Source: an uncultured Eubacterium sp. (GTDB lineage: Bacteria > Bacillota > Clostridia > Lachnospirales > Lachnospiraceae). Taken from it: a stretch of DNA of 57,026 bases. Below the pieces are notes generated by a model, which was not told the DNA's origin, searched no databases, and saw nothing but the letters and a program-made list of their open reading frames with translations. Positions 13,549-50,453 of this stretch are shown one piece after another; the stretch's first letter is position 1; each line of letters starts with the position of its first letter. A program made the position numbers and the translations under genes. The stretch is from NCBI GenBank assembly GCA_947090545.1, contig CAMUPC010000004.1, forward strand, positions 1 through 57,026. The letters run 5' to 3'.

Positions 13549-13676
13549 TAGTACATACAGCATCCTGTCAGTAAAAACATGCCAGCTGCATAAAAAGCAG
13601 CGAAAACAGCCATATCCAGGCATATGTCCCCTCAAACAGCCTAAAAATACCTTCGCAACGTTTTGGCAGGAGTATG

Positions 13677-14792: not shown

Positions 14793-14934
14793 AGGTTCCT
14801 CCTATCTGAATGTTTATCTGGCTGCTTTTTCTTTGTATTTTTTTGTATTCATGAGAAAAAAGCAGGCTGTGGAGAATAGTATACCATAAAATAGAAAGAA
14901 TGGGGTGAGGAATAGGGTGAAAAATAAAGTATTT

Positions 14935-15710
14935 TTTGCGCAACTTATTGCTGGTTTGAAGTTGGGGAATGGACAATCTAATGAGACGGAGAAAATAATC
15001 TGCAAAAGAGAAAAACATATTGGTTGCGCATTTTTGATAGTGCTACATATTTGTTGTCCTGCGTTATTTGATTCGTTGTCCAAATTCAGGATATGCGCAA
15101 TATAAATTAAAGGCGTGTAGGGATAGTTGCGATTAATGCAGGTTGCGCAACAGGAAAAGCACCACTGTGAAATGAGTAATGAGTGTTGTTAGATGTATCT
15201 GTTATTAGCCTCGATTCGTAGGAACAATATTTTATTATACACTTAATATTTTAAATAAGCAGTGTATATAAAGGGAAAAACAGGGGCATACTAGATAAAT
15301 CATGGTAGGTTTCAGGCTACAGGCACTGCAAGGTATGATTGGTTTTCAGGGAAAGAGACATATTTTACGAAGAATCATCCGTTATACCCATACGAAATAA
15401 CAGTGTAAATTGGAAGATGTGATAAATATTTATACGTTTTAGGAAGCTATCAAAAGCAAAACAGTAGAATGGCTATTAATAATAGGATATAACGGATGCT
15501 ACCCTTTTAAGCCGATCTTCTCACTAGCTTGATGCAGAAAAGAAAACTTGTGCGGGAATGAGCTTTATCATGCCTTGGGGGGATGTTCTTAGGTGCTGAG
15601 AAAATATGAGCAACAATATTTTCAAAAAAACTGTTTGAAAGGAATAGTTGCGCTTGATCGTTAAACATTTTAAAAGACAAGATCGGAGAATCCTTAGATT
15701 TATGCGCAAC
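14935..15710. repeat. Cluster of GTTGCGCAAC-like palindromes
   Basis: A 10-bp palindrome with core TGCGCA recurs at 14935 (9 of 10 matches), 15023, 15092, 15142 (perfect), 15647 and 15701, all inside the gene-free region. A weaker copy, GTTGCGATTA, is at 15126. The same motif appears twice more in the window, at 46093 and 46150, inside the iteron region of the replicon. The spacing is irregular. Protein-binding sites are the natural guess. Confidence 0.5.
15308..15407 (+). pseudogene. Possible remnant of a coding region
   Basis: After an in-frame stop near 15293, about 33 codons with a protein-like composition (including YDWFSGKETYFTKNHPLY) run to a stop at about 15407. There is no start codon with a ribosome binding site. 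The peptide is not recognised. It may be the tail of a decayed gene, or chance. Confidence 0.2.
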
Positions 15711-16053
15711 ACTGTAAAAACCATTGAAATGCAAGCGTGGCAAAGTAAAAATAGAGCAGGATATATGCAGATAATTTGCATAAATATAAATGCATGATAG
15801 AATCTACACCAGAATAGCTTGAAAAAGAAGCTTTATACTTCGTTTTGATATATAATTTTTGCAGTAATTGAACGATAGGTGTTCTATGGGAAAAATGTTG
15901 CAAAGCAATCCTGTATAACACATCCATAAATCAGGAAATTCGTATATACGGATTTAAAAAAGACAACAACTTCGGTTCATTATAGCGCATAAGTACCCGC
16001 ACAAAGATGAAAAGGATCGTTCAGTCCCAGTTGCTTCTTTTGCTGATCACAGC

Positions 16054-16105
16054 AAAAAAACAAATCCTGCATCATGAATGAATACCAAATATCATGCAGG
16101 ATTTG
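16054..16105 (-). terminator. Intrinsic terminator of the PPK2 gene
   Basis: A 12-bp stem (16061-16072 with 16094-16105) is followed on the minus strand by seven T residues. It begins 11 bases past the PPK2 stop codon. The stem contains the same AATCCTGCAT sequence as the terminator at 9549-9594. Confidence 0.85.
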
Positions 16106-16115
16106 CTTCATAAAT

Positions 16116-17588: not shown

Positions 17589-17720
17589 AATCGCTGCCTC
17601 TCTTTCTTCTTATTGTTTTTTGTGTAAACCTTATAATATAAATGTATCAAAAAAAACGCGTTCCGTCAATGCTCACAAATAAGATCTTTAAAATAAATAG
17701 AAAATTAGTGATTCTATGCA

Positions 17721-17763
17721 AAAAGAAGGCAGGCGCACTGCTTTTTACAGTTAGCCTGCCTTC
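17721..17763 (-). terminator. Intrinsic terminator after the 60-aa gene
   Basis: A 10-bp stem of GAAGGCAGGC (17725-17734) and GCCTGCCTTC (17754-17763) is followed on the minus strand by a short T-run. It starts 9 bases past the stop of the small gene. Confidence 0.85.
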
Positions 17764-17771
17764 TCTCTTTT

Positions 17772-17954
17772 TTAAAGCCAATCTCCGCTTAACCGGCTAA
17801 TAATCCGGTCCATATCCGCTTTGCTTTTTGCATCGCGGCATTCGTTTAATACCTGCTCCTTTTCTGCTTCAGTTAATTTGCTGTAGGCATCCAGCGCATC
17901 CTTTTTCATTGACATTCCTAATGCAAAACCGATTGGTAATTGATTCATATCCAT
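17772..17954 (-). CDS. Small conserved-looking protein of unknown function
   Basis: Protein of 60 aa beginning MDMNQLPIGFALGMSM, followed by a charged helical part with DAYSKLTEAEKEQVL and ending in SRLSGDWL. The start at 17954 was preferred over a Met pair 10 codons upstream, because AAAGGAGA lies about 12 bases before it. It resembles small uncharacterised proteins common in Clostridia; I know no function. It is followed by its own terminator, which supports it being a real, separately expressed gene. Confidence 0.72.
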   Translation of the reverse strand: MDMNQLPIGFALGMSMKKDALDAYSKLTEAEKEQVLNECRDAKSKADMDRIISRLSGDWL

Positions 17955-18069
17955 AAAATACTGACTCTCCTTTCTCAGCATCAAGCTGTGACGATGTCAG
18001 TATTTGTAGAATTCGCTGTTTTATACGTGGATGTCCATATCTGTAAAAATGGTAATGATCGTTAACGGG

Positions 18070-19482
18070 TTAACGTTTGCTGGGGCGCCCGATCAACCGG
18101 ATACTGTCACTGGCATCATAGATGCGTTCCGTAACCGTATTGCTGGTGCTGCTTGCTTCAATCACAGTCCCATAATAGCCGATGCCTTCTTCGTACGCAT
18201 ATCCTGCAAAAAGGGCTGTATGGTCAATATCCAAATAACGCCCGTTATCTCCCTGGAAAGAATAATAGATCGTATCGCCAGGAATTAATTTACAACTTAA
18301 TATATCGACTGCCCCTTCTGAAACCAAATGTCTCGTGGAAGAACACCAGCGCGCTTCATCAGCCGCCGTTGGCGCCCAGGTGGGGTGTGTATAACCGAAC
18401 CGGATTCCATATTGCCGGTAACAGCGGTACACAAGAGAACTGCAATCATAATAGTTTTTCGACATACGCTTCTCCTGGCTGTACTGAATATTTTTCAAAT
18501 TTGAGATGGCGCGCGCGTCCTTCATTACCCGGTAAGCGGTCTTACTGCTTACCGATACGATGCAGATGGCTTTCCTGCCATTTGCTTTTGCAGTGATTTT
18601 GGTAGTGCCAATCCCTTTCATCGACACAATTCCGGTTTTTGATACAGTCGCTACATTTTTGTTGCCGGACGTCCAGGTTACTTTATGGCTTCCGGCTCCT
18701 TTCAGCTTTAAGTTTTTAATACCGCTTCCCAGATATGTATTGATTACATATTTGTTCAGCGTATAATGATGCACTGTGACACGGACAGAAAGCGGCACGC
18801 CATATACCTTCATACGGATATTGGTTACCCCTTTTGCAATGCCGCGGATATAAATGCTGCCATCCCGAAAGAAAGCGTCTGCAACCCCTGGATTGCCCGC
18901 TTCAATGGAACAATGCGAACCAGAATTCATCGCATCGCGGATCGTTTCATCTGACCAATCCTGCCCGCTTTCATAATAACTGGTGTCTAAATCAACCCCT
19001 TCGACAGCAACTTCTGTGCTTGGGGCTTCATCGTTTTGATAAATCGTAACATTTTCACTCGATAATGTCAGCTCAGATACCAGAATCTGGCAGGAAAGCA
19101 CCGTTTGTGCTCCATCATACCCAGTAGCTGTAATAAACAATTCCGTATGCCCGGCTGCAAGGGGTGTAATCGTTACCGACTGCGCCGTTTCGTTTGATAA
19201 GGCGGCCACCGCCTGGCTGCTGTCGGACAGTTCATACAAAGCACTGGCTGCATGGAATACCTGCAATTCATAGGTATCTCCGCCAGCCAATAAATGTACC
19301 TGTGTCGTTTGCAACGACGGCACTTCCTGGATGGCTACTGGCATATCCAAAGGGCCTTGTACTGAAATTTCATCCAAATCCGCTGCACCCTTCACCAAAA
19401 CAGGCTGGCTGTATAGTAAGCTTACAGCCAGCGCCAGGATGAAGAACAGACAGCATTCTTTTCTGACATTCTCTATCATCAT
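18070..19482 (-). CDS. Secreted NlpC/P60-type cell-wall hydrolase with Ig-like domain
   Basis: Secreted protein of 470 aa with a signal peptide (about residues 1-32). The middle contains a Big_2-type Ig-like domain: VTWTSGNKNVATVSKTGIV, then GTTKITAKANG. The C-terminal 150 residues form an NlpC/P60-like cysteine peptidase with the catalytic Cys in YDCSSLVYRC and His in DIDHTALFAG. Such enzymes cut peptidoglycan stem peptides. GAGGAAG precedes the ATG. No adjacent gene points to a specific process. Confidence 0.85.
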   Translation of the reverse strand: MMIENVRKECCLFFILALAVSLLYSQPVLVKGAADLDEISVQGPLDMPVAIQEVPSLQTTQVHLLAGGDTYELQVFHAASALYELSDSSQAVAALSNETAQSVTITPLAAGHTELFITATGYDGAQTVLSCQILVSELTLSSENVTIYQNDEAPSTEVAVEGVDLDTSYYESGQDWSDETIRDAMNSGSHCSIEAGNPGVADAFFRDGSIYIRGIAKGVTNIRMKVYGVPLSVRVTVHHYTLNKYVINTYLGSGIKNLKLKGAGSHKVTWTSGNKNVATVSKTGIVSMKGIGTTKITAKANGRKAICIVSVSSKTAYRVMKDARAISNLKNIQYSQEKRMSKNYYDCSSLVYRCYRQYGIRFGYTHPTWAPTAADEARWCSSTRHLVSEGAVDILSCKLIPGDTIYYSFQGDNGRYLDIDHTALFAGYAYEEGIGYYGTVIEASSTSNTVTERIYDASDSIRLIGRPSKR

Positions 19483-19570
19483 TGTTTTGCTTCCTCTTTC
19501 TGTATTTTAAAGCACAAAATGCATTTTCTTATACCTTGTTTTTATTTCCCTGTTTCCAGCCGGCATTAAA

Positions 19571-21697
19571 TTATAAATGTATAACCCTGGACCTGATTTC
19601 TTTTGTCTTTCCTTCGTTCCAGAAATTTTCCCCAAGGTATCCGCAGGTTCTGCGGACAACATTCATTTTGGAATGGTCTTTATTACCGCACTGCGGGCAC
19701 TCCCATTCAAAATCATCATTAATAAGGATCTCGCCGTCATATCCGCAGCATTGGCAGTAATCTGACTTTGTATTAAACTCTGCATATTGTATATTGTCAT
19801 AAATATATCGGATCGCGGACTCCAATGCCTCCAGATTATGCTTCATATTTGGGATTTCCACAAGAGAGATCGCTCCTCCCGACGACAGGTTTTGAAAGCT
19901 GCTTTCAAATGTCAGCTTTGCAAACGCATCAATCTGCTCCCGCACATCCACATGATACGAGTTTGTATAGTAGCCCTTATCCGTTACATCTTTTACATCG
20001 CCAAACCGCTTTTTATCAATTTTCGCAAAACGATAGCACAAGCTTTCTGCCGGCGTTCCATACAGGGCAAATCCAAGCTTTGTTTCCTCCTTCCACCTGT
20101 CCACTGTGTTTCGCAAATACTGCATCAGCTTTAACGCAAATTCCCTTCCCTGCGGTGCCGTATGGCTGCACTGGCGCATCAGTATGGTTGTTTCATACAC
20201 GCCAATATAGCCTAAGGACAACGTAGAATAACCGTTTTTCAAAAGCTGGTCGATGACTTCTCCCTTTTGCAGCCTTGCAATCGCGCCATATTGCCAGTGG
20301 ATCGGGCTCGTGTCCGACTTTACGCCAAGCAGTGCCTGATGGCGGCACATCAAAGCTTCATAGCAAAGCTCCAGCCGTTCTTCTAACAACTGCCAGAACT
20401 GTTCGTCCTTTCCTTTTGCAAGCAACGCAATCTGCGGCAGGTTAATGCTTACGACCCCTTGGTTAAACCTGCCTTCAAATTTGTAATTCCCATGTTCATC
20501 CTTCCACGGTGAAAGAAAGCTGCGGCAACCCATACAGCTAAATACGTTTCCTTCATAATTCTCCCGCATCTTTTTCGCCGAAATATAGTCCGGGTACATC
20601 CGCTTTGCAGAGCATTTTGCCGCAAGCTTTGTCAAATAGTCATATTTTCCGCCTTTCAAACAGTTATGCTCATCGAGCACATAAACGAGCTTTGGAAACG
20701 CAGGGGTAACATAAACACCTTTTTCGTTTTTAATCCCCTGATAGCGCTGGCGGAATACTTCCTCAATAATCAAGGCATTTTCTTCGATATAAGGATCGTT
20801 CTCATCAATATGCAAAAACAGCGTAACAAACGGAGACTGCCCGTTTGTCGTCATCAAGGTATTGATCTGGTACTGCATCGTCTGGACGCCTGCCTGTAGC
20901 TCTTCTTTCGTCCACATGGAGACAACCTGTGCAAGCTGATCCTTGCGAAAGCCTTCCCCCAGCTCCTGTTCTGCTTTTTTCTGAAATTTTTCACGGCTGT
21001 AGCGCAAATATTTTCCAAGGTGAATCAAATCTACCGACTGTCCGCCATACTGGTTCGATGCAACAGACGCAATAATCTGTGTCGTTACAGTACAAGCTAC
21101 CCGAAAACTTTTCGGCGTTTCAATCAGCTTTCCGTTAATAACGGTGCCATGGTCTAACATATTGCCTATATCAATCAGGCAGCAGTTAAAAATTGGCTGC
21201 AAAAAATAATCGGCATCATGAAAATGGATCGCGCCGCTTTCATGCGCCTGTACAATTTTATCTGGCAGCAATACGCGTTTTGTAAGGTCTCTTGATACCT
21301 CACCCGCAATATAATCTCTCTGCGTAGAAGCAAGCAGCGTATTTTTATTGGAATTTTCCTCAGCCAGCTCTTTATTATCATTGCGGATCAGTGATAAGAT
21401 AGATTCGTCGGTTGTATTTGCTTTTCTTACAAGCGCGTGTTTATAACGATAAATAATATACTTTTTTGCCAGTTCATACTTTTGTTCCTGGACAAGGCTA
21501 TGCTCAATGAAGTCCTGGATTTCTTCTACCTGGATCTGCCTGCATGACATATTTGAAATCAGCCGCTCAATATCCTCCATCTTCTGGTCAGTGATCTGGT
21601 CATGGACAGGCACCTCATTATTTGCTTTTTTCATCGCTAAAATAATCTTCATCCTGTCGTAATCTACAACCCTTCCGTCCCGTTTTATTACCTTCAC
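19571..21697 (-). CDS. nrdD: Anaerobic ribonucleoside-triphosphate reductase, class III
   Basis: Makes deoxyribonucleoside triphosphates under anoxia by glycyl-radical chemistry. The 708-aa protein begins with an ATP-cone (VIKRDGRVVDYDRMKIILAM), the usual allosteric domain. Near the C terminus are two CxxC pairs for zinc (YCQCCGYDG and ECPQCGN) and the radical motif RTCGYLGENFW, with the radical Gly at about residue 686. Translation starts at GTG after GGAGG. It lies 26 bases downstream of pncB and is probably cotranscribed with it. The activating enzyme gene nrdG, often next door, is not in this window. Confidence 0.97.
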   Translation of the reverse strand: MKVIKRDGRVVDYDRMKIILAMKKANNEVPVHDQITDQKMEDIERLISNMSCRQIQVEEIQDFIEHSLVQEQKYELAKKYIIYRYKHALVRKANTTDESILSLIRNDNKELAEENSNKNTLLASTQRDYIAGEVSRDLTKRVLLPDKIVQAHESGAIHFHDADYFLQPIFNCCLIDIGNMLDHGTVINGKLIETPKSFRVACTVTTQIIASVASNQYGGQSVDLIHLGKYLRYSREKFQKKAEQELGEGFRKDQLAQVVSMWTKEELQAGVQTMQYQINTLMTTNGQSPFVTLFLHIDENDPYIEENALIIEEVFRQRYQGIKNEKGVYVTPAFPKLVYVLDEHNCLKGGKYDYLTKLAAKCSAKRMYPDYISAKKMRENYEGNVFSCMGCRSFLSPWKDEHGNYKFEGRFNQGVVSINLPQIALLAKGKDEQFWQLLEERLELCYEALMCRHQALLGVKSDTSPIHWQYGAIARLQKGEVIDQLLKNGYSTLSLGYIGVYETTILMRQCSHTAPQGREFALKLMQYLRNTVDRWKEETKLGFALYGTPAESLCYRFAKIDKKRFGDVKDVTDKGYYTNSYHVDVREQIDAFAKLTFESSFQNLSSGGAISLVEIPNMKHNLEALESAIRYIYDNIQYAEFNTKSDYCQCCGYDGEILINDDFEWECPQCGNKDHSKMNVVRRTCGYLGENFWNEGKTKEIRSRVIHL

Positions 21698-35679: not shown

Positions 35680-37332
35680 TTAAAGCTGAGACAGGAAATG
35701 GTCCAGGCGCTTTCTTACAACCTCTTCTCCGAGAACTTTCATAATCGTATGAAGGTCTGGGGAATTTTTATGCCCGGTCACTGCAACACGGATGATCGAG
35801 CATAGATCAGAGATAGAGCCCTTGTAATCCTGCGGATGCTTTTTATATTCCTTCATATTCGGACAGTATCCCATCGGCTCGCCAAGCGCCTTCATCTGCT
35901 CAAACCATTCATCCGTTTCTAAAAACAGGTCCTTTTTATAAGCGCATACTGCTTCCTGCAATTGCTCCTTTGTATATTTTTCATCCAGTTCATACGTAAC
36001 GGTTTGCTCAAACTTATCCTGTGGCTGATATAAGTAATCAAACATCTGCATCAGGTCATTCCACTTTGCCACATCCTTACGGACCTTTTTCCCTGACATT
36101 TTCCATAAGCTGATCGTTTCCTGAAACTGCTTGCTATGGGAATCTGCAAACTGGTACAAGTCTGGCTCATATGCCTTTGCCCACGCTATAATCTGCCGCT
36201 CGCATTCGGCTACAGAATAGCCGGCAATCATCTCCCTGCTTATATTCAAAAGCTTTGCCATATCAAAGAGTGCGCCGCTTGCAGGCATCTTGGAAAGAGA
36301 AAGCGGAAAATCTTCTCCTGTTTTTTCCGGGTGTGCCATATGCCATTCCTCATAATCAGAATTGGCAATGGTAAGCAGATACTCTTTTACGCTGTCAACC
36401 GGAAATCCCTGTTCCAAATAATAGCTTACCGCTGCCTCCGGGTCTTTCCGCTTGCTCAGCTTTCGCTTTGCCGCACCGTCCATTTTCATAATAGGAGAAA
36501 TATGCAGATAATCCGGCGCTTTGAACCCGCACAAATCAAACATCTGTTTATGGACTGGATAAGATGCCATCCACTCGTCGCCACGTACGACAAGGCTTGT
36601 CCTCATAAAGTGGTCATCTACCACATGTGCGAAATGATACGTTGGAATCCCATCCGATTTTAAAAGGACAAGATCCATTTTATTTTCCGGCATCTCAATA
36701 CTTCCGCGGATCGGGTCTGTATATACGACATGCTTTCCCTCGTCCTGCGGTGCTTTCAGACGAATCACATATGGTATTCCAGCGCGTATTTTTTCTTCAA
36801 CCTGTTCATAGGTCAAGTTACGGCAGCAGGCATATGCCCCATAATAGCCTATATCGTCCTTTTTTTCTTCCTGTTCCCTGCGCACCGCATCCAAATCTTC
36901 TGCCGTACAAAAACATGGGTAAGCGTATCCCTTCCGTACAAGCTCCTTTACACATGCCTGATAGATCTCTTTTCGTTCACTCTGCTTGTATGGCCCATAG
37001 GCTTTTTCCCCGCCTTCAAACGGGCCCTCGTCAAATTCTACGCCATATCCTGACAGTGACTTGATAATTTCCTCTACACCGCCTTCCAGCTCGCGTTTTT
37101 TGTCTGTGTCTTCGATCCTCAAATAGAAAACACCGTTCGTCTGCCGGGCAAGCCTGCTGGAAATCATTGCAGCATATAAGCCTCCAATATGCATATATCC
37201 TGTCGGGCTTGGCGCAAAACGTGTCACATAAGCCCCTTCCTCAAGCTCTCTCTTTGGAAAACGCTCTTCTAGCTGCGCTATCGAGCCTGTTATATTTGGA
37301 AATATCAATTCAGCTAATTTATTCTCATCCAT
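35680..37332 (-). CDS. gltX: Glutamate--tRNA ligase
   Basis: Class I aminoacyl-tRNA synthetase of 550 aa that charges tRNA with glutamate. It has the HIGH-type motif RFAPSPTGYMHIGGLYAA at about 38-54, the following RIEDTDKKRE, and the KMSKS-type KRKLSKRKDPEA near residue 300. It is somewhat longer than the usual 470-500 aa. AGGAG precedes the ATG, and a strong promoter lies 40-70 bases upstream. This is an essential function in organisms without another copy, which matters for judging the replicon beside it. Confidence 0.96.
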   Translation of the reverse strand: MDENKLAELIFPNITGSIAQLEERFPKRELEEGAYVTRFAPSPTGYMHIGGLYAAMISSRLARQTNGVFYLRIEDTDKKRELEGGVEEIIKSLSGYGVEFDEGPFEGGEKAYGPYKQSERKEIYQACVKELVRKGYAYPCFCTAEDLDAVRREQEEKKDDIGYYGAYACCRNLTYEQVEEKIRAGIPYVIRLKAPQDEGKHVVYTDPIRGSIEMPENKMDLVLLKSDGIPTYHFAHVVDDHFMRTSLVVRGDEWMASYPVHKQMFDLCGFKAPDYLHISPIMKMDGAAKRKLSKRKDPEAAVSYYLEQGFPVDSVKEYLLTIANSDYEEWHMAHPEKTGEDFPLSLSKMPASGALFDMAKLLNISREMIAGYSVAECERQIIAWAKAYEPDLYQFADSHSKQFQETISLWKMSGKKVRKDVAKWNDLMQMFDYLYQPQDKFEQTVTYELDEKYTKEQLQEAVCAYKKDLFLETDEWFEQMKALGEPMGYCPNMKEYKKHPQDYKGSISDLCSIIRVAVTGHKNSPDLHTIMKVLGEEVVRKRLDHFLSQL

Positions 37333-39647: not shown

Positions 39648-39899
39648 CCCTTCAACAATTGTATATGAATATGATTAACAGAAATGTAATAATTATTGCT
39701 CTATTAATTCATATTCGTGATAACTAATATTTGAAAAATGTAATTTATTCTTTAAATATTTTCACACTTTTCTTTATATTCATTATCATTAACTTTTTAT
39801 TTTTTTATTTTACTTTACATTATACAAAATATTATGACAATATTCAATATTTTGATGTGTTTTCTTTGCAATAAATAATCTCGGATTTCTTCAACTAAA

Positions 39900-39958
39900 T
39901 TTAAGTACAAGTCCTGCAATACAAAGTATCTTCTTAAATTGAAAGACTTGTATTTAAG
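39900..39958. repeat. Imperfect inverted repeat at the left of the centromere-like region
   Basis: TTTAAGTACAAGTC (39900-39913) pairs with GACTTGTATTTAAG (39945-39958) at 12 of 14 positions. It lies left of the palindrome array and about 250 bases from the aminopeptidase start. It may mark a boundary or be a transcription terminator; no T-run is close. Confidence 0.35.
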
Positions 39959-40312
39959 TTAAATGAGGCTTTTTGTATTATATTCGTAATTTATAATGAT
40001 TAATTTGAACTATACATTGTCTGTATTTGATTTGCATAATTTTATACTGATTAGGGATCGAAATATTTAATTTACTGTGACCATTTTTTAATAAATTTAT
40101 TATTAATTTTTATTATTCTCGATTGAATCTACAATTCTAATCAAATTTTCATTATGAGGTTTCGCAGATTCAAATATTACACATCATGCCCCAAAGCGAT
40201 TTGTATTTTAAACAACATAATAATGAATGTTTAATAATATATTTATTATTTTATTAAGGATATTTTTATTGTTTATACAATAATATTACAACATAAATTT
40301 TTATTCAAGAAG

Positions 40313-42473
40313 TGAAGTACTTCGCCTATTTTTTATATTAAATGTTTAAACTTATTAGTAAGTGAATCACTTCAATACGGCAAAATAGTCTTTAATCATT
40401 TAATTTTTTAAGAATAATAATGAAAGCCATTTCATAAAAACGCATCTATTTATACTATTTTGAAATTCGGCAGCTTATAAAAAATTGCTAAATTATAATA
40501 CTTGTATAATAATATTTCTATACAAGTGAAGTACTTCATTTCTGCAATTATTATAAATTAAACGTTAAGTCAAAATTTTTTCTTTTTTCATATTAGGATA
40601 ATTCCAAAATAAGCATTATTTTTTACAAACAAGGAGTCCATTGTTTCTATTAGTAATCCAAAATAATACCGCACTTTCCCTCTGACGTGCCGATTACTTA
40701 TGACTACATAATTATTTGCAATAATTTATAGGATTGCTATAGTTAAAGTGAAGCGCTTCAATTAGCTCTGCCATTTTCCCTAATAGTAATAACTCTTTCT
40801 ATTCATTTTATACAGATGAATTACTTCATCTTCTAACACCAAAACAAAATATTTATTAGAAACGAATTTGTGAGTCCAATAATCTATGAATATATAATGT
40901 AAACTCAATGCCATTCATTTTTTTATAATCCTATTATTTTATCAAACATAACTCAAAAAAAACTAAATACAAAAATTAAACTGAAGTACTTCATTTGACA
41001 ATACTTCATACTACTAATATTTGATTCAAATTAATTTTCCCAATTCCTTCCAAAGCCCCATCCAGCCCTAAACTAGAATCCTGTACATTCTGATTCACGC
41101 CATTGCACAGTTAAAATACCCTGTATAGCGTTGCAGAAAATCATGGTAAATAGAATGCCCAAATTTTGTGCCAGCGCAAAGCAGAGAAAAGAAGTGAAGT
41201 AGTTCTATCGTAGACTGGCGATAGTATGCCCTTTTCTTAAGGTACAACGCGACGTTGTCATAAAAGACAAGTGTTGTATTCACCGTTACTTCTGCAATCA
41301 TGTATTAATCAATAGAAACAAAACATTACTCCATCGAAGCGACTATATTACCATCTAATTTTGCCAAGCACCGGTACAAATTAGCTAACAAAACTTTCTA
41401 ATTTCTGACTAAATAGAGCATTATGTTTTATTTCTGTGAAAAACTTATTTATCAATTCATTTATTAACTATTATATTTATAGTATAATCACTTTACACCC
41501 GTTTACGACTTTCTACGTTTTGACATATTATTACCAAATTCACAACCACATGTAGTATATAATTGCAATTATTTAATCTTTATTTTGTATCTAAACAAAA
41601 ATTATAAACTGGTGATCACTATATATCTTTTAGAAAATATCTTGATAATTGAAGTACTTCATTCATAAATCTAATTTCTGACAGGTTAAAAAACGAATGA
41701 AATGATATTTTGCATATTTCAAATGCCGCATATTTCCCAATATGTATTGTATATAAAAAATGAAGTGCTTCATTTTCTATAACAATATTACAAATAATCT
41801 CCTTTCTAAATAATTATATTATAAAAATTCTCTAATGAAACACCTTAATACAAACAACGAAATATTTTGTCTCAATTTCTTTTTCAGAACGATGCAAATA
41901 GCAGAGCATTAAACTTACAATTAAATATAATTAGAAACATTACAATTTATTCTTTAAATATAAGCAGTAGCGTTACCTTTATTATTTTTTTGCACACTCT
42001 GAAATATACTACTCATAAACTATCAACTGAAGCTCTTCCACATCTAAAAAATATATATTTATATTTATATTTATTTTTTTTAATCCGTTTTCTTCTAAAA
42101 ATTAACCCGTTCTTTTCAATATTATTCTCAATAACAGCTATCCAATAACAAACAATCTAAATATCTGCCATACCATTTTTAAAACAATCTCATTACCATA
42201 TCGTCACAATTTAGTTTGCAAGAAACCAAAACTCTCGTCAAATTATATCATATAAACCCATACACAAAATGAAAGAAGAAGTGAAGGACTTCACCTAAAA
42301 AATCAACGATATAACTCCACTTTTAAAAACATAAATACTAACAAGCAAGCGAAAGATTTTAACCGCCTATACCTTACGCAAATATAAATTTTCATAATAA
42401 CAAAATTCACCTACGTTGGCATAAAGTTTATATGATAGCTATACCTTTTATAACAAATAAGTGAAGTACTTCA
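40313..42473. repeat. Dispersed 12-bp palindromes TGAAGTACTTCA (candidate parS array)
   Basis: Eight sites match TGAAGNNCTTC: 40313, 40527, 40749 (GC centre), 40982, 41650, 41761 (GC centre), 42282 (GA centre) and 42462. Weaker copies are at 40363, 40817, 41195 and 42028. The perfect form is self-complementary over 12 bases. Spacings range from 50 to 455 bases with no fixed period. The array ends 250 bases before parA and does not occur elsewhere in the window. This is what a cluster of ParB binding sites (a centromere) looks like; the sequence is unlike the chromosomal parS TGTTTCACGTGAAACA. Confidence 0.8.
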
Positions 42474-42664
42474 TCTATTGCATAACCCCTCACTAGCATA
42501 TTAATAAAATACACCTATTCATCAATTCATACCACTACAATTAATTTTTTTATAAAACCGCTTATTTTCTTGTAATAATGATCAAACATAATGTTAAAAT
42601 AAACACCATATTTCTCATGATTTTCAGCATATCTTACAATTTTAAATTTTCTTCCATTTTCTAT

Positions 42665-42693
42665 TTGTAATACTCAATTTTTTTCTGTATAAT
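42665..42693 (+). promoter_or_regulatory. Sigma-A-type promoter for parAB
   Basis: TTGTAA (42665-42670) and TATAAT (42688-42693) are separated by 17 bases. Transcription would start about 20 bases before the GTG start codon, and AAAGGAG (42707-42713) lies in this short leader. No palindrome overlaps the promoter; the nearest is about 190 bases upstream. Confidence 0.7.
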
Positions 42694-42721
42694 CAAGAAA
42701 AAGAGTAAAGGAGATAAGAAA

Positions 42722-43546
42722 GTGTCAGAAACAATTAGTATAAATAATTCAAAAGGCGGCGTAGCAAAATCTACATCTGTAATTACAATTTCACAAATCC
42801 TAGCAATTTCTGGCTACAAAATTTTAATTATTGACCTCGATCCGCAAATGAATACAACAAAAATGTACGGGCAAAACGAAAATCCAGACGTTAATATAGA
42901 ACACCTGTTTTGTACAAAGCAGCTCCGAAAAACGTCTGTAGAAGAATTTGTTTCGCCAACAATTCAACCTGGAATTTCTATCATATCCGCAAGCAGGGAT
43001 TACTATGAACTCATTTATAAAATTCACGCTGCCAGTGAAGAATATCCAGTTGAATTAACCTTCAGAAACAATTTAGAATTTATCAAGGAAGACTATGACT
43101 ACGTCATTATTGACAATTCCCCATTCAAATCTGCGCTGTCAAATTGTTCCCTCTGTGCCAGCGATGGAGTACTGACTCCTATCAACGCAGATAATTTTTC
43201 TTACGATGGGTTAATGGATTTGATCGAAACGATCCAACTGTTAAATGAAACGTATTCCTTATCTATCAATTTTACAGGCATTTTCATGACAAGGGTATCC
43301 AGCCGGACTAATTTATTTAAACAAATGTTCGATAGCTATGAAGAAATGTTTGAAGATAAATTTATCCCTGTATCCATCCGCCAAACAGACGCTGTCAACC
43401 AAAGCAACACAGCCTTTATTCCGCTGTTAAGTTATGATAAACGCTGCACTGCCGCGCAGGATTATATTGAACTTGTAAACTACCTTGGCTTAATGGATAA
43501 CAAGCATTATAAAAAATTAGTAAAATTTATGAAAGGAGAAAAGTAA
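42722..43546 (+). CDS. parA: ParA-family partition ATPase
   Basis: Walker-type ATPase of 274 aa that positions replicons by binding the nucleoid in its ATP form. The deviant Walker A motif KGGVAKST is at 11-18, with the signature Lys at 11, and the A' motif IDLDPQMNTT follows near 38. It has no N-terminal HTH domain of the type seen in P1-like ParA. Translation starts at GTG after AAAGGAG. The stop overlaps the parB ATG by one base, so the pair is coupled. The position next to a palindrome array and parB makes a role in segregation, not cell-surface placement, very likely. Confidence 0.92.
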   Translation: MSETISINNSKGGVAKSTSVITISQILAISGYKILIIDLDPQMNTTKMYGQNENPDVNIEHLFCTKQLRKTSVEEFVSPTIQPGISIISASRDYYELIYKIHAASEEYPVELTFRNNLEFIKEDYDYVIIDNSPFKSALSNCSLCASDGVLTPINADNFSYDGLMDLIETIQLLNETYSLSINFTGIFMTRVSSRTNLFKQMFDSYEEMFEDKFIPVSIRQTDAVNQSNTAFIPLLSYDKRCTAAQDYIELVNYLGLMDNKHYKKLVKFMKGEK

Positions 43547-44748
43547 TGGCTGCAAAAAAAATATTCAAACCAGGACAAACCGCTTCAGGTATTCTGGATT
43601 CGAAAGGCGGTGATAAATTAAGGCAAATGCAGGCAAACTCCAATTATAATTTTAAATTCATCCCCAAAGACAAAATTATCCCAAACGAAAAAAACAAAAA
43701 CTATTCCCAAGACAACATTGAAGCGCTGAGCGAATCTATTATTGTAAACGGATTACGGCATAACCTTTCTGTAATCTATGACTCCTCAACCGACCTTTAC
43801 CGGATCGTATCTGGAGAGCGGCGCTACCATGCAATAAACCTTATGGATGAAAAAACCTACAAGGAACTTTTTCCAACTGGCATTCCCTGCAAAGTAGAGA
43901 AAGCAAATATATCAGAAATAGATGAAGAAATTATGCTTATCTCAGCCAACCACGACATCCGTGAAACTTCCATCGAAGAAAAACGATGGGAAATCAGGCG
44001 CCTGAAAGAATTGTATGAAGCAAAAAAACTTAGCGGAGAAATTACGAATATTTCAAAAGAAATAGCAAAGCAATTAAATATCTCCCAGAGGCAAGCGATT
44101 AAATATGTAAATGCAGAAAAATTAATCCCTGAACTTAGCGATTTGTTAAATCAAAGCGGCATCAGCTTGGAGGACGCCAGCAAATTTAGCCGCCTGGATG
44201 AATGGGCACAGCTTAAAATCGTCGAGCTATTAAATTCCAAAGGAACCGTTGATGCTGAAGAATTAGAAAGCATTAAAAAAATTTCACAAGAAAAAGAACA
44301 AGAAAGTAAAAAAAACCATCAGGAGCTCGAACGGACTTTGCAAATGCTCGCCGAACGTGACAAGAGCATTGAAGCATTGGAACGCCGCATTCAAACGCTC
44401 CAAAATGTTCCCGTCGAAAAACCAGAAAATGACTTGAAAGAAGAGTTAAAATATATTTCTGACGCAAAAGAAAAAGCAGAACGCGAAAAACAACGTTTAG
44501 AAACCCAGCTTGAAAAAATGAAATTGCAGCAAAAGGAACGAGAATCACGCAATACATCCATCTCAGATACCGAATTAAAACGAATCTCCCAAATAGCTAA
44601 AACAGAACAAGCGTTGCAGTTATTTGAAACAAACTTTTCGACCATAAAAAATAATAAAAATATTATTAAAACAGACCCAGATCTTAGAACAAGGCTGGAA
44701 ATTTTAAATGACCGAATCAGGGATTTGCTTTCAGAAATAAGCATATAG
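43546..44748 (+). CDS. parB: ParB/Spo0J-family partition protein
   Basis: Protein of 400 aa with the layout of ParB CTPase clamps. A ParB N-terminal domain carries FKFIPKDKIIPNEKN and the CTP-binding GERRYH box at 90-95. A helix-turn-helix lies at about 168-189 (SKEIAKQLNISQRQAIKYVN), followed by a helical linker. A long charged coiled coil at about 242-335 takes the place of a compact dimerisation domain. The extended coiled coil is unusual. It presumably binds the palindromes upstream of parA, which are unlike chromosomal parS. This pairing is inference. Confidence 0.9.
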   Translation: MAAKKIFKPGQTASGILDSKGGDKLRQMQANSNYNFKFIPKDKIIPNEKNKNYSQDNIEALSESIIVNGLRHNLSVIYDSSTDLYRIVSGERRYHAINLMDEKTYKELFPTGIPCKVEKANISEIDEEIMLISANHDIRETSIEEKRWEIRRLKELYEAKKLSGEITNISKEIAKQLNISQRQAIKYVNAEKLIPELSDLLNQSGISLEDASKFSRLDEWAQLKIVELLNSKGTVDAEELESIKKISQEKEQESKKNHQELERTLQMLAERDKSIEALERRIQTLQNVPVEKPENDLKEELKYISDAKEKAEREKQRLETQLEKMKLQQKERESRNTSISDTELKRISQIAKTEQALQLFETNFSTIKNNKNIIKTDPDLRTRLEILNDRIRDLLSEISI

Positions 44749-44862: not shown

Positions 44863-45544
44863 ATTCTTGGAGGATATCATTTGTTTTTCTTGTATTCCAA
44901 TGCTGTATACGAAAACCAAATGATATGTATGTAACAAGCTGAATGGTATATTATGAATCGTCCTATGATATTCATTCTAATTATTAATTTCCACTATAAT
45001 TATGCTATAGCCATTCTATAAATTATTGCACATAATTATATCATCGAATATACTATCTGTTAAACCTAGTAACTGTACTGTTTAGGATTGCTATAATAGT
45101 ACTCACTTAAAGTCATGTAAAATAATCTGCAAAAATAAACTATATAAATAAACTATATAAAATTTTTACTGGTAACTGACTTTTTAAATATTCTAATATT
45201 TTTAACCGTAATATAGATTTATTGAAGAAACGAGCTTAAGCATAAAATATGACAATAGCAAACAACGTTCTTATTGTTAAACGTTGTCTGCAACAAACTA
45301 TTAATATAAAATCTATAAAAGTATATCATTAAATTTCAGATTCTATTTTTTGTTATCAAAATATTCATATGGCATAAAATTAGAATCATAGAAAAGAAGA
45401 TTAGATCTTTTAATCTACTACTTACCCTGAAGGTTAATCATAGTAGAATGGAAAAGTATGGTATAGTATGGTTAGTATGGCGGGTCGAAAAAGCCAGTAA
45501 AATCAAAGTATTCCGAAGCAAAGAAGAGAGCAGTTGGCGGTTTT

Positions 45545-46807
45545 GTTAGGAGAAGATGGCGGTAAAGATAAGAGAGATTGGCATAGGATAAGTGAGAATC
45601 TTGCGGTGCAGCTAAGAAATAATGGCTGTAATGCTACGAGGACATGGCGGTCTATAGGTAAGAAATAAGAAAGTATCATTGACAATTTCTCCTCTTTTGA
45701 ATAAAATATAACGTATAGGAGCGATAGAAACAGCGTCTATGTTCCAAAGAAGGGTGAAAATGCCAACTTGATCATATAAAAGCTAAGAGAAAATGGCGGG
45801 TAATTTCATATATTTCAAAAAATTCGATGGTAAAATGTTAAAAATTAAAATAGAAAGGGGTATCGTATATACGAAGCTAAGAGAAAATGGCGGGAGCGCA
45901 ATGAAATAGGAGTAAAAGGTAAGAGTAAATTGCTGTAGAAAACGGCAAAAAGGGGATAATTCTTAATTTTTAAGAAGATATTTAAGGATTTATATGAAAA
46001 GGTAAGAGAGTATCGCGGCGATAGGAAAGAAAAAATGGAAAAATTGGATGAAAGGTGAGAGAAAACGGCAGCAAAGTAAGAAAAAAAGAAGGATTGCGCA
46101 ACATCTTGTAAAAGCTGGGAAATAGCGGTAACTAGGGAATCGTTTCAATGTTGCGCTATGAAAAAAACTTGCTGTTATCGTCCAAAGCTAAGAGAATATG
46201 GCTGTATCCAGTAATATGGAATGAATAAATTTTGAATAATTATTTATAAAGAGATAGATTCAATAAGGCTTATTCCATAATAAAAGTAAGATAAGAGTAA
46301 ATGGCTGTGATGCATTGAGTGTTTTATTATAGTATGTTGTAGTAAAAATTGGATATAGGTAAGAGTAAATGGCTGTGAAAAGCAAAAGTTAAGAGAAAGT
46401 GGCGGTACAAATAGCAGCAGGTGAGAGAAAGTGGCGGTACAAATAGCAGCAAGTAAGAGAAAACTGCGGTATTAAGTGCGTAGGAAAGGAGAAAAAGGTA
46501 AGAGAAAACTGCGGTAATTATATGTAAACGAGGGAGCATAAGCAATAAATAGGTGAAAGGTAAGAGAAAACTGCGGTTTAAGAGCAAAACGAAAGAAAAA
46601 TTGCCTACATAAAAGCAAAAGTTGAGAGGAAACTGCGGTTTAAAATAAAAGATAAGAGAAGATTGCTGTAGAATGAATGAAATTTTTAAGAAATTAGCAG
46701 TAAACTAAGGTGTTTTTGTCGGCTGTATATAAAAAGGTAAGAGAATATGGCTGGATAATTCAGGTAAAATTTGATAAAAACGATAAAAGGTAAGAGAAAA
46801 CTGCGGT
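45545..46807 (+). repeat. Iteron array upstream of the replication initiator
   Basis: At least 20 direct repeats of about 19 bases share GGTAAGAGAAAANNGCGGT. Two sub-types occur. The left copies end in ATGGCGG or ATGGCTG (45545, 45611, 45633, 45782, 45876, 46187, 46290, 46358). The copies near rep end in ACTGCGG (46452, 46497, 46559, 46621, 46789). Others are at 45567, 45587, 45918, 46001, 46054, 46114, 46388, 46420, 46651 and 46736, some diverged. All lie in the same orientation as rep. Such arrays are the initiator binding sites of iteron-controlled plasmid origins. Confidence 0.9.
46093..46159. repeat. GCGCAACAT inverted pair inside the iterons
   Basis: GCGCAACAT (46096-46104) and ATGTTGCGC (46148-46156) are a perfect 9-bp inverted repeat flanking the diverged iteron at 46114. 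The sequence is the same palindrome core as the cluster at 14935-15710. Confidence 0.45.
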
Positions 46808-46875
46808 GAAAAAAGAAGAAAGCGCTAGCAGAAAGAGAAGAAGGTTTGGCGGTAAATGAAAAATTAGGAGGAAGT

Positions 46876-48162
46876 ATGGCGAAAAAGGCGGAAACATCAC
46901 AGAGCGAGAAAAAGAAAGTGCGGAAGAAAGGAGGAAATGAAGTTGCTTTCAGGCCCCAAAGCATAGTGGAAGCCAGATATAACTTGGACCGAAGGCAAAA
47001 TGATATTATGGATATCGCATTCGGCATGATTGATGACCAGATTGACAAGAAAGAATATTCTATCCGGGTTGCAGATGTGAAAGAGTATTATAATATAGAA
47101 GATAAATCACACGCATACCGTTTTTTAAAGCAGGCAGTAGAATCTTTGGAGGGAAAAGGATTTAAACTAAAAAAAGATGAGGATACCTCGATCTTTTATC
47201 CATGGTTTTCTAAAATTACATATGTCAGGGCAAAGGATGAAGAAAACAGCCATATAGATTTTAAGATGGATGACGATTTAAAGAGGATGATTGTAGAATC
47301 CAGGCGAGGCGCGTATTATTCGATCCGGTATGCCATCAATTTAAGCAACAAGTATGCAAAACGGCTGTATTATTTATTTCAAGACAGGAAAAATTGGAAT
47401 TTGAAAAACCCGGATATGGAGACAGGGGTATTTACAATTGCAATAGAAGAGTTGCTTCGGATGCTGGATTGCCCGAAATCATATAAATACACAGATTTTA
47501 AGCGGTATGTCATTAAGCCATCGATGGAACAGATCAATGGAAGTACGGATATTTATTTTGAATATGATGAAAACCGGGGAAAATTAAAATCAGGGCAAAA
47601 GGGAGTGCTGAGCTTAACCTTTCATGTTACGCAGCTCAATCCAAATTCAAAAATTGTGGCAGATTCTACGTTTTATGAAATAACCAGCCAGCATGTTGAA
47701 ATAAGAAAGAGGGGATATCTGGATGCAGAGGTAAGGGATATATTATCAATGGCAAGAAAATTCAGCCGGGATGACCGATTTATCGAGGAAGCGCTGGATG
47801 TGGTAGACCATACAAAATGTGACAGCAGGGTAGGGCTTGCTTGCTATTTTATGAAGCATGGGTATAACCAGCCATATACAAGCCGCCAGCCAGAAAAATA
47901 CGATGGTTTGAAAACAGCGGAACGTACAACTGCGTATGCTGGTTTTGAGCAGCGGGAATATGATTATGAAGAGTTGGAAAAGAACCTGTTGAACCAAGGA
48001 AAGATGTCGCAGCCGCAGCAAAAAGCTGAAGAAAAGAAGCCTAAGAATACAGGCGTAAAAGAAATTTCGGTAGAAGAATTACAAAGCATGATGGCAGGAA
48101 ATCCACAGTTACAGCAGGAAATTGCAAGCCTATTGGAAAAAATGAATGGAAAGAAGCAATAA
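46876..48162 (+). CDS. Rep_3-type replication initiator protein
   Basis: Protein of 428 aa. The central part matches RepA/RepB/Pi-type initiators with two winged-helix domains. ARYNLDRRQNDIMDIAFGMI and the SNKYAKRLYYLFQD segment belong to the first. DFKRYVIKPSMEQINGSTDI and FEYDENRGKLKSGQKG belong to the second. The N-terminal 25 residues are very basic. The C-terminal 120 residues form a Gln/Lys-rich tail with no recognised domain, so it is longer than many plasmid Reps. TTAGGAGG precedes the ATG at 46876; the frame opens 10 codons earlier at a TTG inside non-coding repeats. It should bind the iterons upstream and start replication there. Confidence 0.92.
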   Translation: MAKKAETSQSEKKKVRKKGGNEVAFRPQSIVEARYNLDRRQNDIMDIAFGMIDDQIDKKEYSIRVADVKEYYNIEDKSHAYRFLKQAVESLEGKGFKLKKDEDTSIFYPWFSKITYVRAKDEENSHIDFKMDDDLKRMIVESRRGAYYSIRYAINLSNKYAKRLYYLFQDRKNWNLKNPDMETGVFTIAIEELLRMLDCPKSYKYTDFKRYVIKPSMEQINGSTDIYFEYDENRGKLKSGQKGVLSLTFHVTQLNPNSKIVADSTFYEITSQHVEIRKRGYLDAEVRDILSMARKFSRDDRFIEEALDVVDHTKCDSRVGLACYFMKHGYNQPYTSRQPEKYDGLKTAERTTAYAGFEQREYDYEELEKNLLNQGKMSQPQQKAEEKKPKNTGVKEISVEELQSMMAGNPQLQQEIASLLEKMNGKKQ

Positions 48163-49313: not shown

Positions 49314-50453
49314 TTATACGGTGGTATGTATTCCGTTGACATTGACATTTTCATCTGCATCCATAGGGATAACCAGGCATTTCTTGCCATCAATGATCTG
49401 TGATTTAATTTGGGATGCTTTTTCAGGCTTGACATGGAGCACAACGTCGTAGGTCTTTACTTCAAATTTACGCTGGTCAATGACATTTTGTGCATAAAGC
49501 GGTGTATCGCCGATCTTTTTGTCGTATTCCTGCTCTGCCTGTGTGATTTTCTCTTCAGAGACTCCGCTTGCATTTAAGATTTCACAGATCGAATCTTTGG
49601 AGAGCTCTATCTGTTCCGGCTCTTCGCCTTTGACGGAAGGCGTGCCGCTGTCTATAATTTTTTCCTGTATGTTATCGTGGATTTCCTTAACCGTTTCATA
49701 ACTGCATTCTTCGCCGAGCGTATCTTCTAAAAAGGAACGGAACACTTCTTTTTGTTCGGCGGCTGTCATTTTTTTACTGCATCCCAATACGCCTTCGATC
49801 AGGCCTTCCGGCGGTTCTTTTGCGTTTTTTGTGTAAAAAAGTGCGGCATGGATATCGGTGCTGCGGTCTGTAAAAGCTGGGAATACAAATCCGGCATCTG
49901 GCGCGCCAACAACCCAGTCACGCAGGCGCAGCCCGATTTCGTTGGATTGCTCCAAGTATCCAAGCCCCGGTTTGGATAATGTCACCGGGCAGATGGCACA
50001 TAGCAGGTATTCATAGATCTCTTCGGACTCATCGAGGCTTCGATGGTCTTTGGTTTTCAGCGGCACATCATAGGCGTCGTGGAAAATAAGGATCAGGTAA
50101 TTGCCGGCGTAGTCGTAATGGTCGATAACCAGGTCGTAAAATCGTTCCAGCAAATCTTCGCTTTTTAATTTGCTTTCGCGCAGCCCAAGCAGGAATTGCT
50201 GCCTGCCGCCCCGCTCTTCTTCGGAAAGTGGAAATTCGAGTTCCAGAAGGTTGTTGCCAGGTGTCCCGGACAAGACTTTTTTTGCAAGCTCCAGGTATTT
50301 GAAAAATTCTTCTTCATCCAGATTTAAGAAGGTCTTTCCTAGGCGTGTGACCCGGTTGTGTTCGCCATCCACATAACAGCCGCACATGCGTGTGAATGTG
50401 CAGCCTTCTTTTTTGAATCGTTTTTTGATTTCCATAATTTCTTTCTTATTCAA
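49314..50453 (-). CDS. DUF4317 family protein
   Basis: Cytoplasmic protein of 379 aa resembling DUF4317, a family common in Clostridia with no known function. The opening MNKKEIMEIKKRFKKEG, then RMCGCYVDG and the LRLRDWVVGAPDAGFVFPAF region, are characteristic. Translation appears to begin at TTG behind AGAGGA; an ATG six codons later is the alternative. No domain with a known activity is visible. Confidence 0.85.
   Translation of the reverse strand: MNKKEIMEIKKRFKKEGCTFTRMCGCYVDGEHNRVTRLGKTFLNLDEEEFFKYLELAKKVLSGTPGNNLLELEFPLSEEERGGRQQFLLGLRESKLKSEDLLERFYDLVIDHYDYAGNYLILIFHDAYDVPLKTKDHRSLDESEEIYEYLLCAICPVTLSKPGLGYLEQSNEIGLRLRDWVVGAPDAGFVFPAFTDRSTDIHAALFYTKNAKEPPEGLIEGVLGCSKKMTAAEQKEVFRSFLEDTLGEECSYETVKEIHDNIQEKIIDSGTPSVKGEEPEQIELSKDSICEILNASGVSEEKITQAEQEYDKKIGDTPLYAQNVIDQRKFEVKTYDVVLHVKPEKASQIKSQIIDGKKCLVIPMDADENVNVNGIHTTV

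What the first reader, a model, noticed from the sequence alone, without database searches (positions are those of the whole stretch)
40313..42473. Twelve dispersed TGAAGTACTTCA palindromes next to parAB: a candidate new centromere type
Eight good and four weaker copies of one 12-bp palindrome are scattered through about 2.2 kb of extremely AT-rich, gene-free DNA directly upstream of parA. They occur nowhere else in the window. The motif is unlike the 16-bp chromosomal parS. Dispersion over kilobases, instead of a compact array, together with a ParB that has a long coiled coil, suggests a spread-out partition complex. ParB binding is inferred.
Basis: partly seen in the sequence, partly recalled or inferred. 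Interest (0 to 1): 0.85.

Follow-up and report, generated by a model that had tools for sequence, protein, structure and literature searches.

The report
Scattered centromere sites of small chromid
A gut bacterium's small second DNA circle carries about a dozen scattered copies of a 12-letter mirror-image sequence that most likely act as its centromere, and a sister group of bacteria uses a slightly altered version beside the matching partition gene.

Summary
Eleven copies of TGAAGTACTTCA (at most two mismatches) lie in 40313-42473, in a gene-free 3.1-kb spacer of 25% GC before parA; 7 of the genome's 10 exact TGAAGNNCTTCA are there. The contig is essentially a whole circular replicon of about 57 kb with a Rep3 initiator and the genome's only detected bacterial-type glutamate-tRNA ligase: a tiny chromid, it seems.

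In the genus the motif clusters beside orthologous parAB in 6 of 7 parB-bearing genomes; the exception, G008, keeps a weakened array. In Lachnospira, 12 of 12 parB-bearing genomes carry a different palindrome, TGAACTSAGTTCA, in the same place. The motifs never co-occur there, hybrids are absent, and ParB's recognition helix differs consistently. The chromosomal ParB-parS system is separate.

Best reading: a dispersed parS array loaded by its own HTH-type, probably CTP-dependent ParB. Binding is inferred. Dispersed parS are known (pMF1, N15, RK2), so this is a new variant, not a new type.

The parts
40313..40324 (.). candidate parS site, TGAAGTACTTCG
   Evidence: 1 mismatch; 23.1 bits
40363..40374 (.). 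weak candidate parS site, TGAATCACTTCA
   Evidence: 2 mismatches; 12.2 bits
40527..40538 (.). candidate parS site, TGAAGTACTTCA
   Evidence: exact; 29.0 bits
40749..40760 (.). candidate parS site, TGAAGCGCTTCA
   Evidence: exact TGAAGNNCTTCA; 25.6 bits
40817..40828 (.). candidate parS site, TGAATTACTTCA
   Evidence: 1 mismatch; 18.5 bits
40982..40993 (.). candidate parS site, TGAAGTACTTCA
   Evidence: exact; 24.8 bits
41195..41206 (.). doubtful site, TGAAGTAGTTCT
   Evidence: 2 mismatches; not among the sites above 11 bits
41650..41661 (.). candidate parS site, TGAAGTACTTCA
   Evidence: exact; 21.6 bits
41761..41772 (.). candidate parS site, TGAAGTGCTTCA
   Evidence: exact TGAAGNNCTTCA; 26.3 bits
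42028..42039 (.). doubtful site, TGAAGCTCTTCC
   Evidence: GAAGNNCTTC core; not above 11 bits
42282..42293 (.). candidate parS site, TGAAGGACTTCA
   Evidence: exact TGAAGNNCTTCA; 27.7 bits
42462..42473 (.). candidate parS site, TGAAGTACTTCA
   Evidence: exact; 28.3 bits
42722..43546 (+). parA, 274-aa deviant Walker ATPase without an N-terminal extension for DNA binding
   Evidence: Pfam AAA_31 3e-38 over residues 3-179; translation
43546..44748 (+). parB, 400 aa: ParB N-terminal domain with GERRYHA box, HTH (predicted helices 169-177 and 181-190), long coiled coil, C-terminal helix
   Evidence: ParB_N 1.2e-5, 25.7 bits against cut-off 26.3; alignment; model and PDB fold matches to Noc, ParB and KorB
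45543..46205 (+). iteron-like direct repeats, 10 copies of 21 nt, probable replication origin of the replicon
   Evidence: repeat family D1; GC skew changes sign near 45 kb
46846..48162 (+). Rep3-family replication initiator
   Evidence: Rep3_N 1.4e-20 and Rep3_C 1.5e-15

Best explanation
The palindromes are a dispersed parS array, the centromere of a small (about 57 kb) circular chromid-like replicon. ParB dimers would load at each TGAAGTACTTCA through their HTH domains (one half-site per subunit), close with CTP, slide off and coat the AT-rich, gene-free 2-3 kb and its surroundings. ParA would then move the ParB-coated region, which lies 3-6 kb from the iteron origin, along the nucleoid so that each daughter cell keeps a copy. 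Several loading sites over 2 kb would raise ParB occupancy without a tandem array. The palindrome changes together with ParB: in Lachnospira the half-site's fifth base and the half-site spacing both differ (TGAACT-S-AGTTCA). Shown: the array, its clustering, its recurrence beside parAB, the change of motif with ParB clade, the ParB fold prediction, and collinearity with a circular replicon. Inferred: ParB binding, CTP-dependent spreading, and the segregation function.
For: Clustering in the own genome. Of 13 genus genomes, 7 have this ParB and 6 of these have an exact cluster beside it; the 6 without it have 0-7 sites, and the 14 of their 16 sites that the list prints are each on a contig of their own. 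In 7 fetched group-1 stretches, 30 of 30 exact sites lie within 4 kb before parA, a region making up 25,097 of 167,813 bases (G008 contributes none; two more sites on the same contigs, G002 C3:37230 and G003 C6:50233, lie outside the stretches used). In 12 Lachnospira stretches, 66 of 70 TGAACTNAGTTCA lie within 1.5 kb before parA, 18,000 of 228,496 bases. Spacers hardly align between species: of 9 short matches outside the parA-proximal stretch and the upstream gene, 6 contain a palindrome (my count from its rows). Neither motif occurs in the other clade's upstream regions, and the hybrids TGAACNNGTTCA and TGAAGTNACTTCA occur in 0 of 19. The recognition helix is SQRQAIKYVNA in 7 of 7 group-1 rows and SERQARKYTTA in 11 of 11 Lachnospira rows. 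Two remote relatives (ParB about 31-32% identical) have palindromes of their own near parAB: G213 TGGGAAGTACTTCCCA, 3 copies; G197 TGACTTSAAGTCA, 8 copies over about 12 kb. parA is the gene directly beside the array in both clades; Rep3 was not found on the 12 Lachnospira stretches.
Against: No binding, CTPase or stability data. G008 (ParB 77% identical, nearly the same recognition helix) has no exact TGAAGNNCTTCA and only 4 sites above 11 bits, one of them strong. The clade-linked motif change is essentially one evolutionary event, so helix-motif covariation is not independent evidence. The ParB model is of moderate confidence (mean pLDDT 68.3, pTM 0.30), TM-scores of the PDB matches are low, and ParB_N falls just under Pfam's cut-off. 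9 of 11 further ParB-related loci gave no family of three or more palindromes. The three G213 palindromes all lie inside ORFs, the first near the start of the parB frame. G448 has a TGAACTNAGTTCA cluster without a ParB detected at E 1e-15. parAB is not the only shared neighbourhood gene: a DUF4317 gene lies within about 8 kb of the array in both the window and L. eligens, though not beside it.
Confidence: 0.9

Rival explanations
1. The palindromes are operators of a regulator (ParB itself or another repressor) that silences plasmid genes, as KorB does from dispersed O_B sites; partition is secondary or absent.
For: Dispersed short palindromes are typical of KorB-like regulators (PMC11790492, passages). 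In Lachnospira the nearest site is 40-211 bp before parA, so autoregulation is plausible there. G197 sites sit mostly between ORFs around parAB. Single further sites exist on the same contigs in G002, G003 and several Lachnospira genomes.
Against: In the window the sites lie in 3.1 kb without genes, the nearest 260 bp from parA, and no site above 11 bits occurs elsewhere on the replicon, unlike a global regulator.
Confidence: 0.06
2. The palindromes are binding sites of the Rep3 initiator or another replication-control factor.
For: Same replicon, 3-6 kb from the iterons and rep.
Against: Rep has its own iteron-like repeats of unrelated sequence. In G004 rep lies about 7 kb from parB while the array stays before parA. 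No Rep3 homologue was found on the 12 Lachnospira stretches although the array is present; only 13-25 kb per genome were looked at.
Confidence: 0.02
3. A mobile or neutral repeat family that happens to sit in an AT-rich spacer.
For: Gene-free AT-rich DNA tolerates repeats; numbers and positions vary between species.
Against: Beyond about three bases the flanks are not shared between copies; the palindrome persists where the spacer does not align; it sits before parA in 18 of 19 genomes carrying this ParB.
Confidence: 0.02

Closest known systems
Streptomyces SCP1 parABS1 and parABS2 (PMC13245405, passages read)
   Same: Plasmid HTH-ParBs with divergent recognition helices; replicon-specific inverted-repeat parS, distinct from the chromosomal parS; ParB1 has three identical sites around its parAB operon.
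   Different: Different host phylum; fewer sites; other parS sequences; shown there by ChIP-seq and binding assays, which is not the case here.
Dispersed centromere sites of pMF1, N15, RK2 and pSM19035 (named together in PMC3235114, passages read; N15 IR1-4 also in PMC7205306, passages)
   Same: Several separate ParB-binding sites instead of one compact array.
   Different: Other sequences and ParB families (recalled). In the window the good sites are confined to one gene-free spacer; in pMF1 they also lie in ORFs. How widely the N15 sites are scattered is recalled, not read in a call.
KorB-O_B of RK2 (PMC11790492, passages read)
   Same: ParB-fold CTPase clamp loading at scattered short sites; KorB chains are among the PDB fold matches. 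The 13-bp O_B with a central S (recalled) is built like the Lachnospira 13-mer.
   Different: KorB represses distant promoters together with KorA; here the sites are not spread over the replicon's promoters. A KorA-like partner was not looked for.
Burkholderiales secondary-replicon (Bsr) partition systems (PMC5450999, passages read)
   Same: Related ParBs on secondary replicons with their own palindromic parS and narrow specificity; one system has five repeats upstream of parAB.
   Different: 16-bp palindromes with central CG; here 12 or 13 bp, with a change of half-site spacing between sister clades.
Chromosomal ParB/Noc (PMC7383237, passages read)
   Same: Residues in and next to the HTH decide the site bound; specificity can switch through four residues.
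   Different: parS and NBS differ at two positions, with the same spacing; here a half-site base and the spacing differ together.

Membership tests
Type I HTH-ParB ParABS partition system | ParA-type deviant Walker ATPase gene directly before parB | tested here: met
   AAA_31 and CbiA in Pfam; parA ends where parB starts
Type I HTH-ParB ParABS partition system | ParB N-terminal CTP-binding fold with GERR box | tested here: met
   SGERRYHA invariant apart from Y/F in 7 rows; ParB_N match just under cut-off; Foldseek E 5e-8 to 1.4e-4 to 29 Noc, ParB, Spo0J and KorB chains, with low TM-scores
Type I HTH-ParB ParABS partition system | Central HTH domain with recognition helix | tested here: met
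   predicted helices 169-177 and 181-190; aligned to relatives
Type I HTH-ParB ParABS partition system | Cognate palindromic parS near parAB | tested here: met
   18 of 19 genomes with this ParB have two or more exact sites before parA; binding not shown
Type I HTH-ParB ParABS partition system | ParB binds parS, binds and hydrolyses CTP, spreads; locus stabilises the replicon | not testable with these tools
   needs biochemistry or ChIP-seq
Chromosomal Spo0J/ParB family (TIGR00180, 16-bp parS) | Scores over the family cut-off | tested here: not met
   21.2 bits against cut-off 58.45; the ParB on C71 scores 207.9
Chromosomal Spo0J/ParB family (TIGR00180, 16-bp parS) | TGTTTCACGTGAAACA sites nearby | tested here: not met
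   the genome's 7 sites (up to 2 mismatches) are on C71 (5), C58 (1) and C318 (1), none on C4
KorB-like global repressor | operator sites at several promoters across the replicon | tested here: not met
   no site above 11 bits outside the parA-upstream region in the window
Chromid (secondary replicon with plasmid-type replication and core genes) | plasmid-type replication and partition, core genes, composition near the chromosome's | tested here: inconclusive
   Rep3 and ParAB; the only gltX_bact-type GluRS detected in the genome, the other hit being GlnRS; no genome-wide composition comparison made; assembly 96% complete in 380 contigs

The most novel reading that the evidence does not exclude
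A whole clade of clostridial ParBs has a fast-changing centromere code. Sister clades of one ParABS changed both a half-site base and the half-site spacing (12-bp TGAAGTACTTCA against 13-bp TGAACTSAGTTCA), and more remote relatives use TGGGAAGTACTTCCCA or GGTGACTTSAAGTCACC, each dispersed around parAB. This would give a set of natural, mutually orthogonal centromeres, one of them on a chromid of only about 57 kb that holds the cell's only glutamyl-tRNA synthetase.
Probability: 0.55. Interest if true: 0.7.

Novelty: new variant of a known kind. Interest (0 to 1): 0.58.

Why it matters
It names probable centromeres for secondary replicons of common gut Lachnospiraceae, including the 626-kb L. 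eligens replicon, for which my searches found no described parS: (parS, ParB, plasmid, Lachnospiraceae) listed 2 papers, neither about this by title and abstract; one search found 0 papers with TGAACTCAGTTCA (the G-centred spelling was not searched); one search found 3 with TGAAGTACTTCA, none on partition by title and abstract. The library holds open-licence papers only. The pair of sister clades is a natural experiment in how ParB changes half-site base and half-site spacing together, which the ParB/Noc switch of PMC7383237 does not show. It also gives candidate sequences for stable vectors and orthogonal DNA labels in Lachnospiraceae.

Tried and rejected
Remote ParB relatives: 11 loci were scanned for palindrome families (L104-L110, L082, L083, L084, L045). 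Only L083 (G213) and L084 (G197) gave a family of three or more copies. Of the other 9, L104, L108 and L045 gave one two-copy family each, scores 6.1-6.8; shuffles over all loci reached up to 7.1, though the 40 shuffles of L104 and of L108 themselves gave none. The remaining 6 gave nothing. L046 gave none and L047 (weak ParB matches in the genus) only a two-copy family below its shuffle maximum. Of 4 control stretches without parB, one had a two-copy family below its shuffle maximum.

Helical phasing of the spacings: none seen. Viral contigs: two scans found no relative. tRNA and Rfam scans of the window found nothing. Rep3 in plasmids: only matches below 60% identity, so no replicon type could be named. 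Circularity: the window has no exact terminal overlap of 20-399 bases; circularity rests on the relatives. Two surveys of secondary replicons (PMC12456017, PMC13342612) contain no 'Lachnospir' or 'eligens' in the main text; Butyrivibrio chromid papers appear in the reference list of the first. Paper searches listed nothing on this system by title and abstract among the rows shown.

Rejected: 'the long coiled coil makes the array dispersed'. Lachnospira ParBs have the same C-terminal architecture with compact arrays.

Rows dropped: in the ParB alignment, L074 (G447), L082 (G428) and L045 (G040) were left out because the frame set by my script gave no usable protein; L052 (G003) ends at residue 225, where the assembled gene is interrupted, and served only for the recognition helix. 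In one search, G008 was left out of the matrix. The printed lists were cut; the two G005 sites, the two G450 sites and one G447 site were not seen individually.

On checking this report against the calls I mended, among others, the claim that parAB is the only shared neighbour (a DUF4317 gene is shared too), the place of the G213 palindromes (inside ORFs), and the wording on two-copy families.

Full report
Observation. The window carries 11 copies of TGAAGTACTTCA with at most two mismatches between 40313 and 42473; 15 are found in the whole window against 2.07 expected, and all 7 of its exact TGAAGNNCTTCA are in the cluster, against 0.06 expected. In the whole genome, 4.42 Mb in 380 contigs, there are 10 exact TGAAGNNCTTCA, 7 of them here. 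The spacer 39648-42721 between a peptidase gene and parA is 3,074 bases at 25.3% GC.

The replicon. parA (42722-43546), parB (43546-44748), iteron-like repeats (45543-46205) and a Rep3 initiator (46846-48162) follow the array. GC skew is strongly negative from 16 to 45 kb, positive from 45 to 48 kb and near zero elsewhere, where most long ORFs run on the minus strand; this suits an origin near 45 kb and a terminus near 16 kb, on the opposite side of a circle, but gene orientation blurs it. The window is the whole contig. Its two ends lie 28 bases apart in G004 C28, whose own ends fall at about 15-16 kb of the window; contig 6 of G003 (E. plexicaudatum, 77.8 kb) has redundant ends that imply a circle of about 65.4 kb and is collinear with the window. 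The window itself has no exact terminal overlap. So it is essentially a complete circular replicon of about 57 kb, separate in G003 from a 6.35-Mb contig. It carries gltX (over the gltX_bact cut-off), aroB, nrdD and a nicotinate phosphoribosyltransferase. The only other match to its GluRS in the genome is a GlnRS; nrdD has a second copy 55% identical. The replicon therefore looks like a very small chromid, though a second gltX in an unassembled part cannot be excluded (completeness 96%).

Two separate partition systems. The canonical parS 16-mer occurs on contigs C71 (5 sites) and C58 (1), plus one two-mismatch match on C318, not on this replicon. The five on C71 lie in 421 bp beside a parAB whose ParB scores 207.9 bits for TIGR00180; the window ParB scores 21.2, below the cut-off of 58.45.

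Same motif, same place, in the genus. Of 13 genus genomes searched, 7 have this ParB (77-100% identical or, in G003, an interrupted copy); G005 has only a distant ParB, 27% identical. Exact TGAAGNNCTTCA before parA: G000 7, G004 8, G002 4, G009 4, G003 4, G011 3 and G008 0. G011's array is cut by a contig end; five more sites lie at the end of contig C63, which is collinear with window 32-39.6 kb. Whole-genome totals for these seven, in the same order, are 10, 12, 5, 8, 17, 9 and 3. In G003 the count includes four duplicates from the redundant contig ends, one further site on the same contig and eight on the chromosome; in G002 one further site is on the same contig. The six genomes without this ParB have 0-7 sites, 16 in all; the 14 printed are each on a contig of their own, G005's two were not printed. 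G008 is the exception: a spacer with two stop-to-stop frames of 120 aa or more, 34% GC, seven GAAGNNCTTC cores within 2.3 kb of parA, and one strong and three weak matrix hits.

A different motif in Lachnospira. A search for any repeated palindrome found TGAACTNAGTTCA in the loci whose ParB is 57-61% identical. In the genus of G020, 12 of 22 genomes have this ParB; all 12 have 2-8 copies within 1.4 kb before parA, 66 in all, out of 78 copies in those 12 genomes. In L. eligens all 4 genome copies are on the 626-kb secondary replicon, within 23 kb; of the two single ones, one is inside a gene and one between genes. The 10 genomes without a detected ParB have 16 copies in all, 6 of them in G448, where they sit on two contigs, four of them at a contig end within 76-bp tandem repeats; parAB may lie in an assembly gap there, but this is not shown. 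The central base is C or G in 67 of 68 sites. Orthologues are not common outside these genera: a family-wide draw gave 7 matches in 397 genomes, 4 of them at 60% identity or more, and an order-wide draw 13 in 392.

Coupled change. The half-sites TGAAGT and TGAACT differ by one base and the palindromes by one base pair of spacing. In 19 upstream regions the two motifs never co-occur and neither hybrid is found. The recognition helix reads SQRQAIKYVNA in 7 of 7 group-1 rows and SERQARKYTTA in 11 of 11 Lachnospira rows. This lies in the region shown to set ParB/Noc specificity (PMC7383237, passages). It is one change on the tree, so it is suggestive only.

Wider family. Two relatives with ParB about 31-32% identical have palindromes of their own: G213 has TGGGAAGTACTTCCCA three times, all inside ORFs, sharing the ten-base core GAAGTACTTC; G197 has TGACTTSAAGTCA eight times across about 12 kb around parAB, mostly between ORFs. 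Nine of the 11 such loci gave no family of three or more copies.

Mechanism. The predicted ParB has the N-terminal domain with the GERR box, an HTH and long coiled-coil helices (mean pLDDT 68.3), and its best PDB fold matches are Noc, ParB and KorB chains, at low TM-scores. ParA has no N-terminal DNA-binding extension, so ParB is the likely reader of the palindrome. The most likely mechanism is parS-loaded, CTP-dependent sliding clamps covering the gene-free spacer, with ParA moving the complex. Every step after the sequence comparison is inferred from the family. The neighbourhoods of the window and L. eligens share parA, parB and, less closely, a DUF4317 gene.

Comparison. Several plasmids have dispersed centromere sites (PMC3235114, passages), and plasmid ParBs with their own parS beside a chromosomal system are documented (PMC13245405; PMC5450999). 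What appears new is the parS sequences, their dispersion in a long gene-free spacer, the coupled base and spacing difference between sister clades, and the assignment to chromid-like replicons of gut Lachnospiraceae. Hence: new variant of a known kind.

Noticed in passing
window 35680-37332 (-): Glutamate-tRNA ligase (over the gltX_bact cut-off) on a replicon of about 57 kb; the only other match in the genome is a GlnRS on C164, so the replicon may be essential.
   Followed up: partly
window 40708-40742 and 45005-45039; also 40722-40741, 42424-42443, 45076-45095: A 35-nt inverted repeat, 91% complementary, with one arm inside the array and one after parB, and further direct copies of its TTTATAGGATTGCTATA-like core. 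Unexplained.
   Followed up: no
window 45543-46205: Ten iteron-like 21-nt repeats between parB and rep, at the change of sign of GC skew.
   Followed up: partly
window 49314-50453 (-); L043 4948-6117: A DUF4317 gene lies within about 8 kb of the parS array in both the window and the L. eligens replicon, on different sides of parAB.
   Followed up: no
L090 (G448 C9) 1-300: Four TGAACTSAGTTCA in 76-bp tandem repeats at a contig end, with no orthologous ParB found in that genome at E 1e-15.
   Followed up: partly
L084 (G197) 7830-19709: Eight TGACTTSAAGTCA palindromes, seven of them extended to GGTGACTTSAAGTCACC, over about 12 kb around a remote parAB.
   Followed up: partly
L083 (G213) 9866, 11966, 12592: Three identical TGGGAAGTACTTCCCA near a remote parAB, all inside ORFs of 80 aa or more.
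   Followed up: partly
G003 C6 (L049-L052): The E. plexicaudatum contig of 77.8 kb has about 12 kb of end redundancy, implying a circle of about 65.4 kb; parB is interrupted in the assembly.
   Followed up: yes
window 19571-21697 (-): An anaerobic ribonucleotide reductase on the replicon besides a second, 55% identical copy elsewhere in the genome.
   Followed up: no
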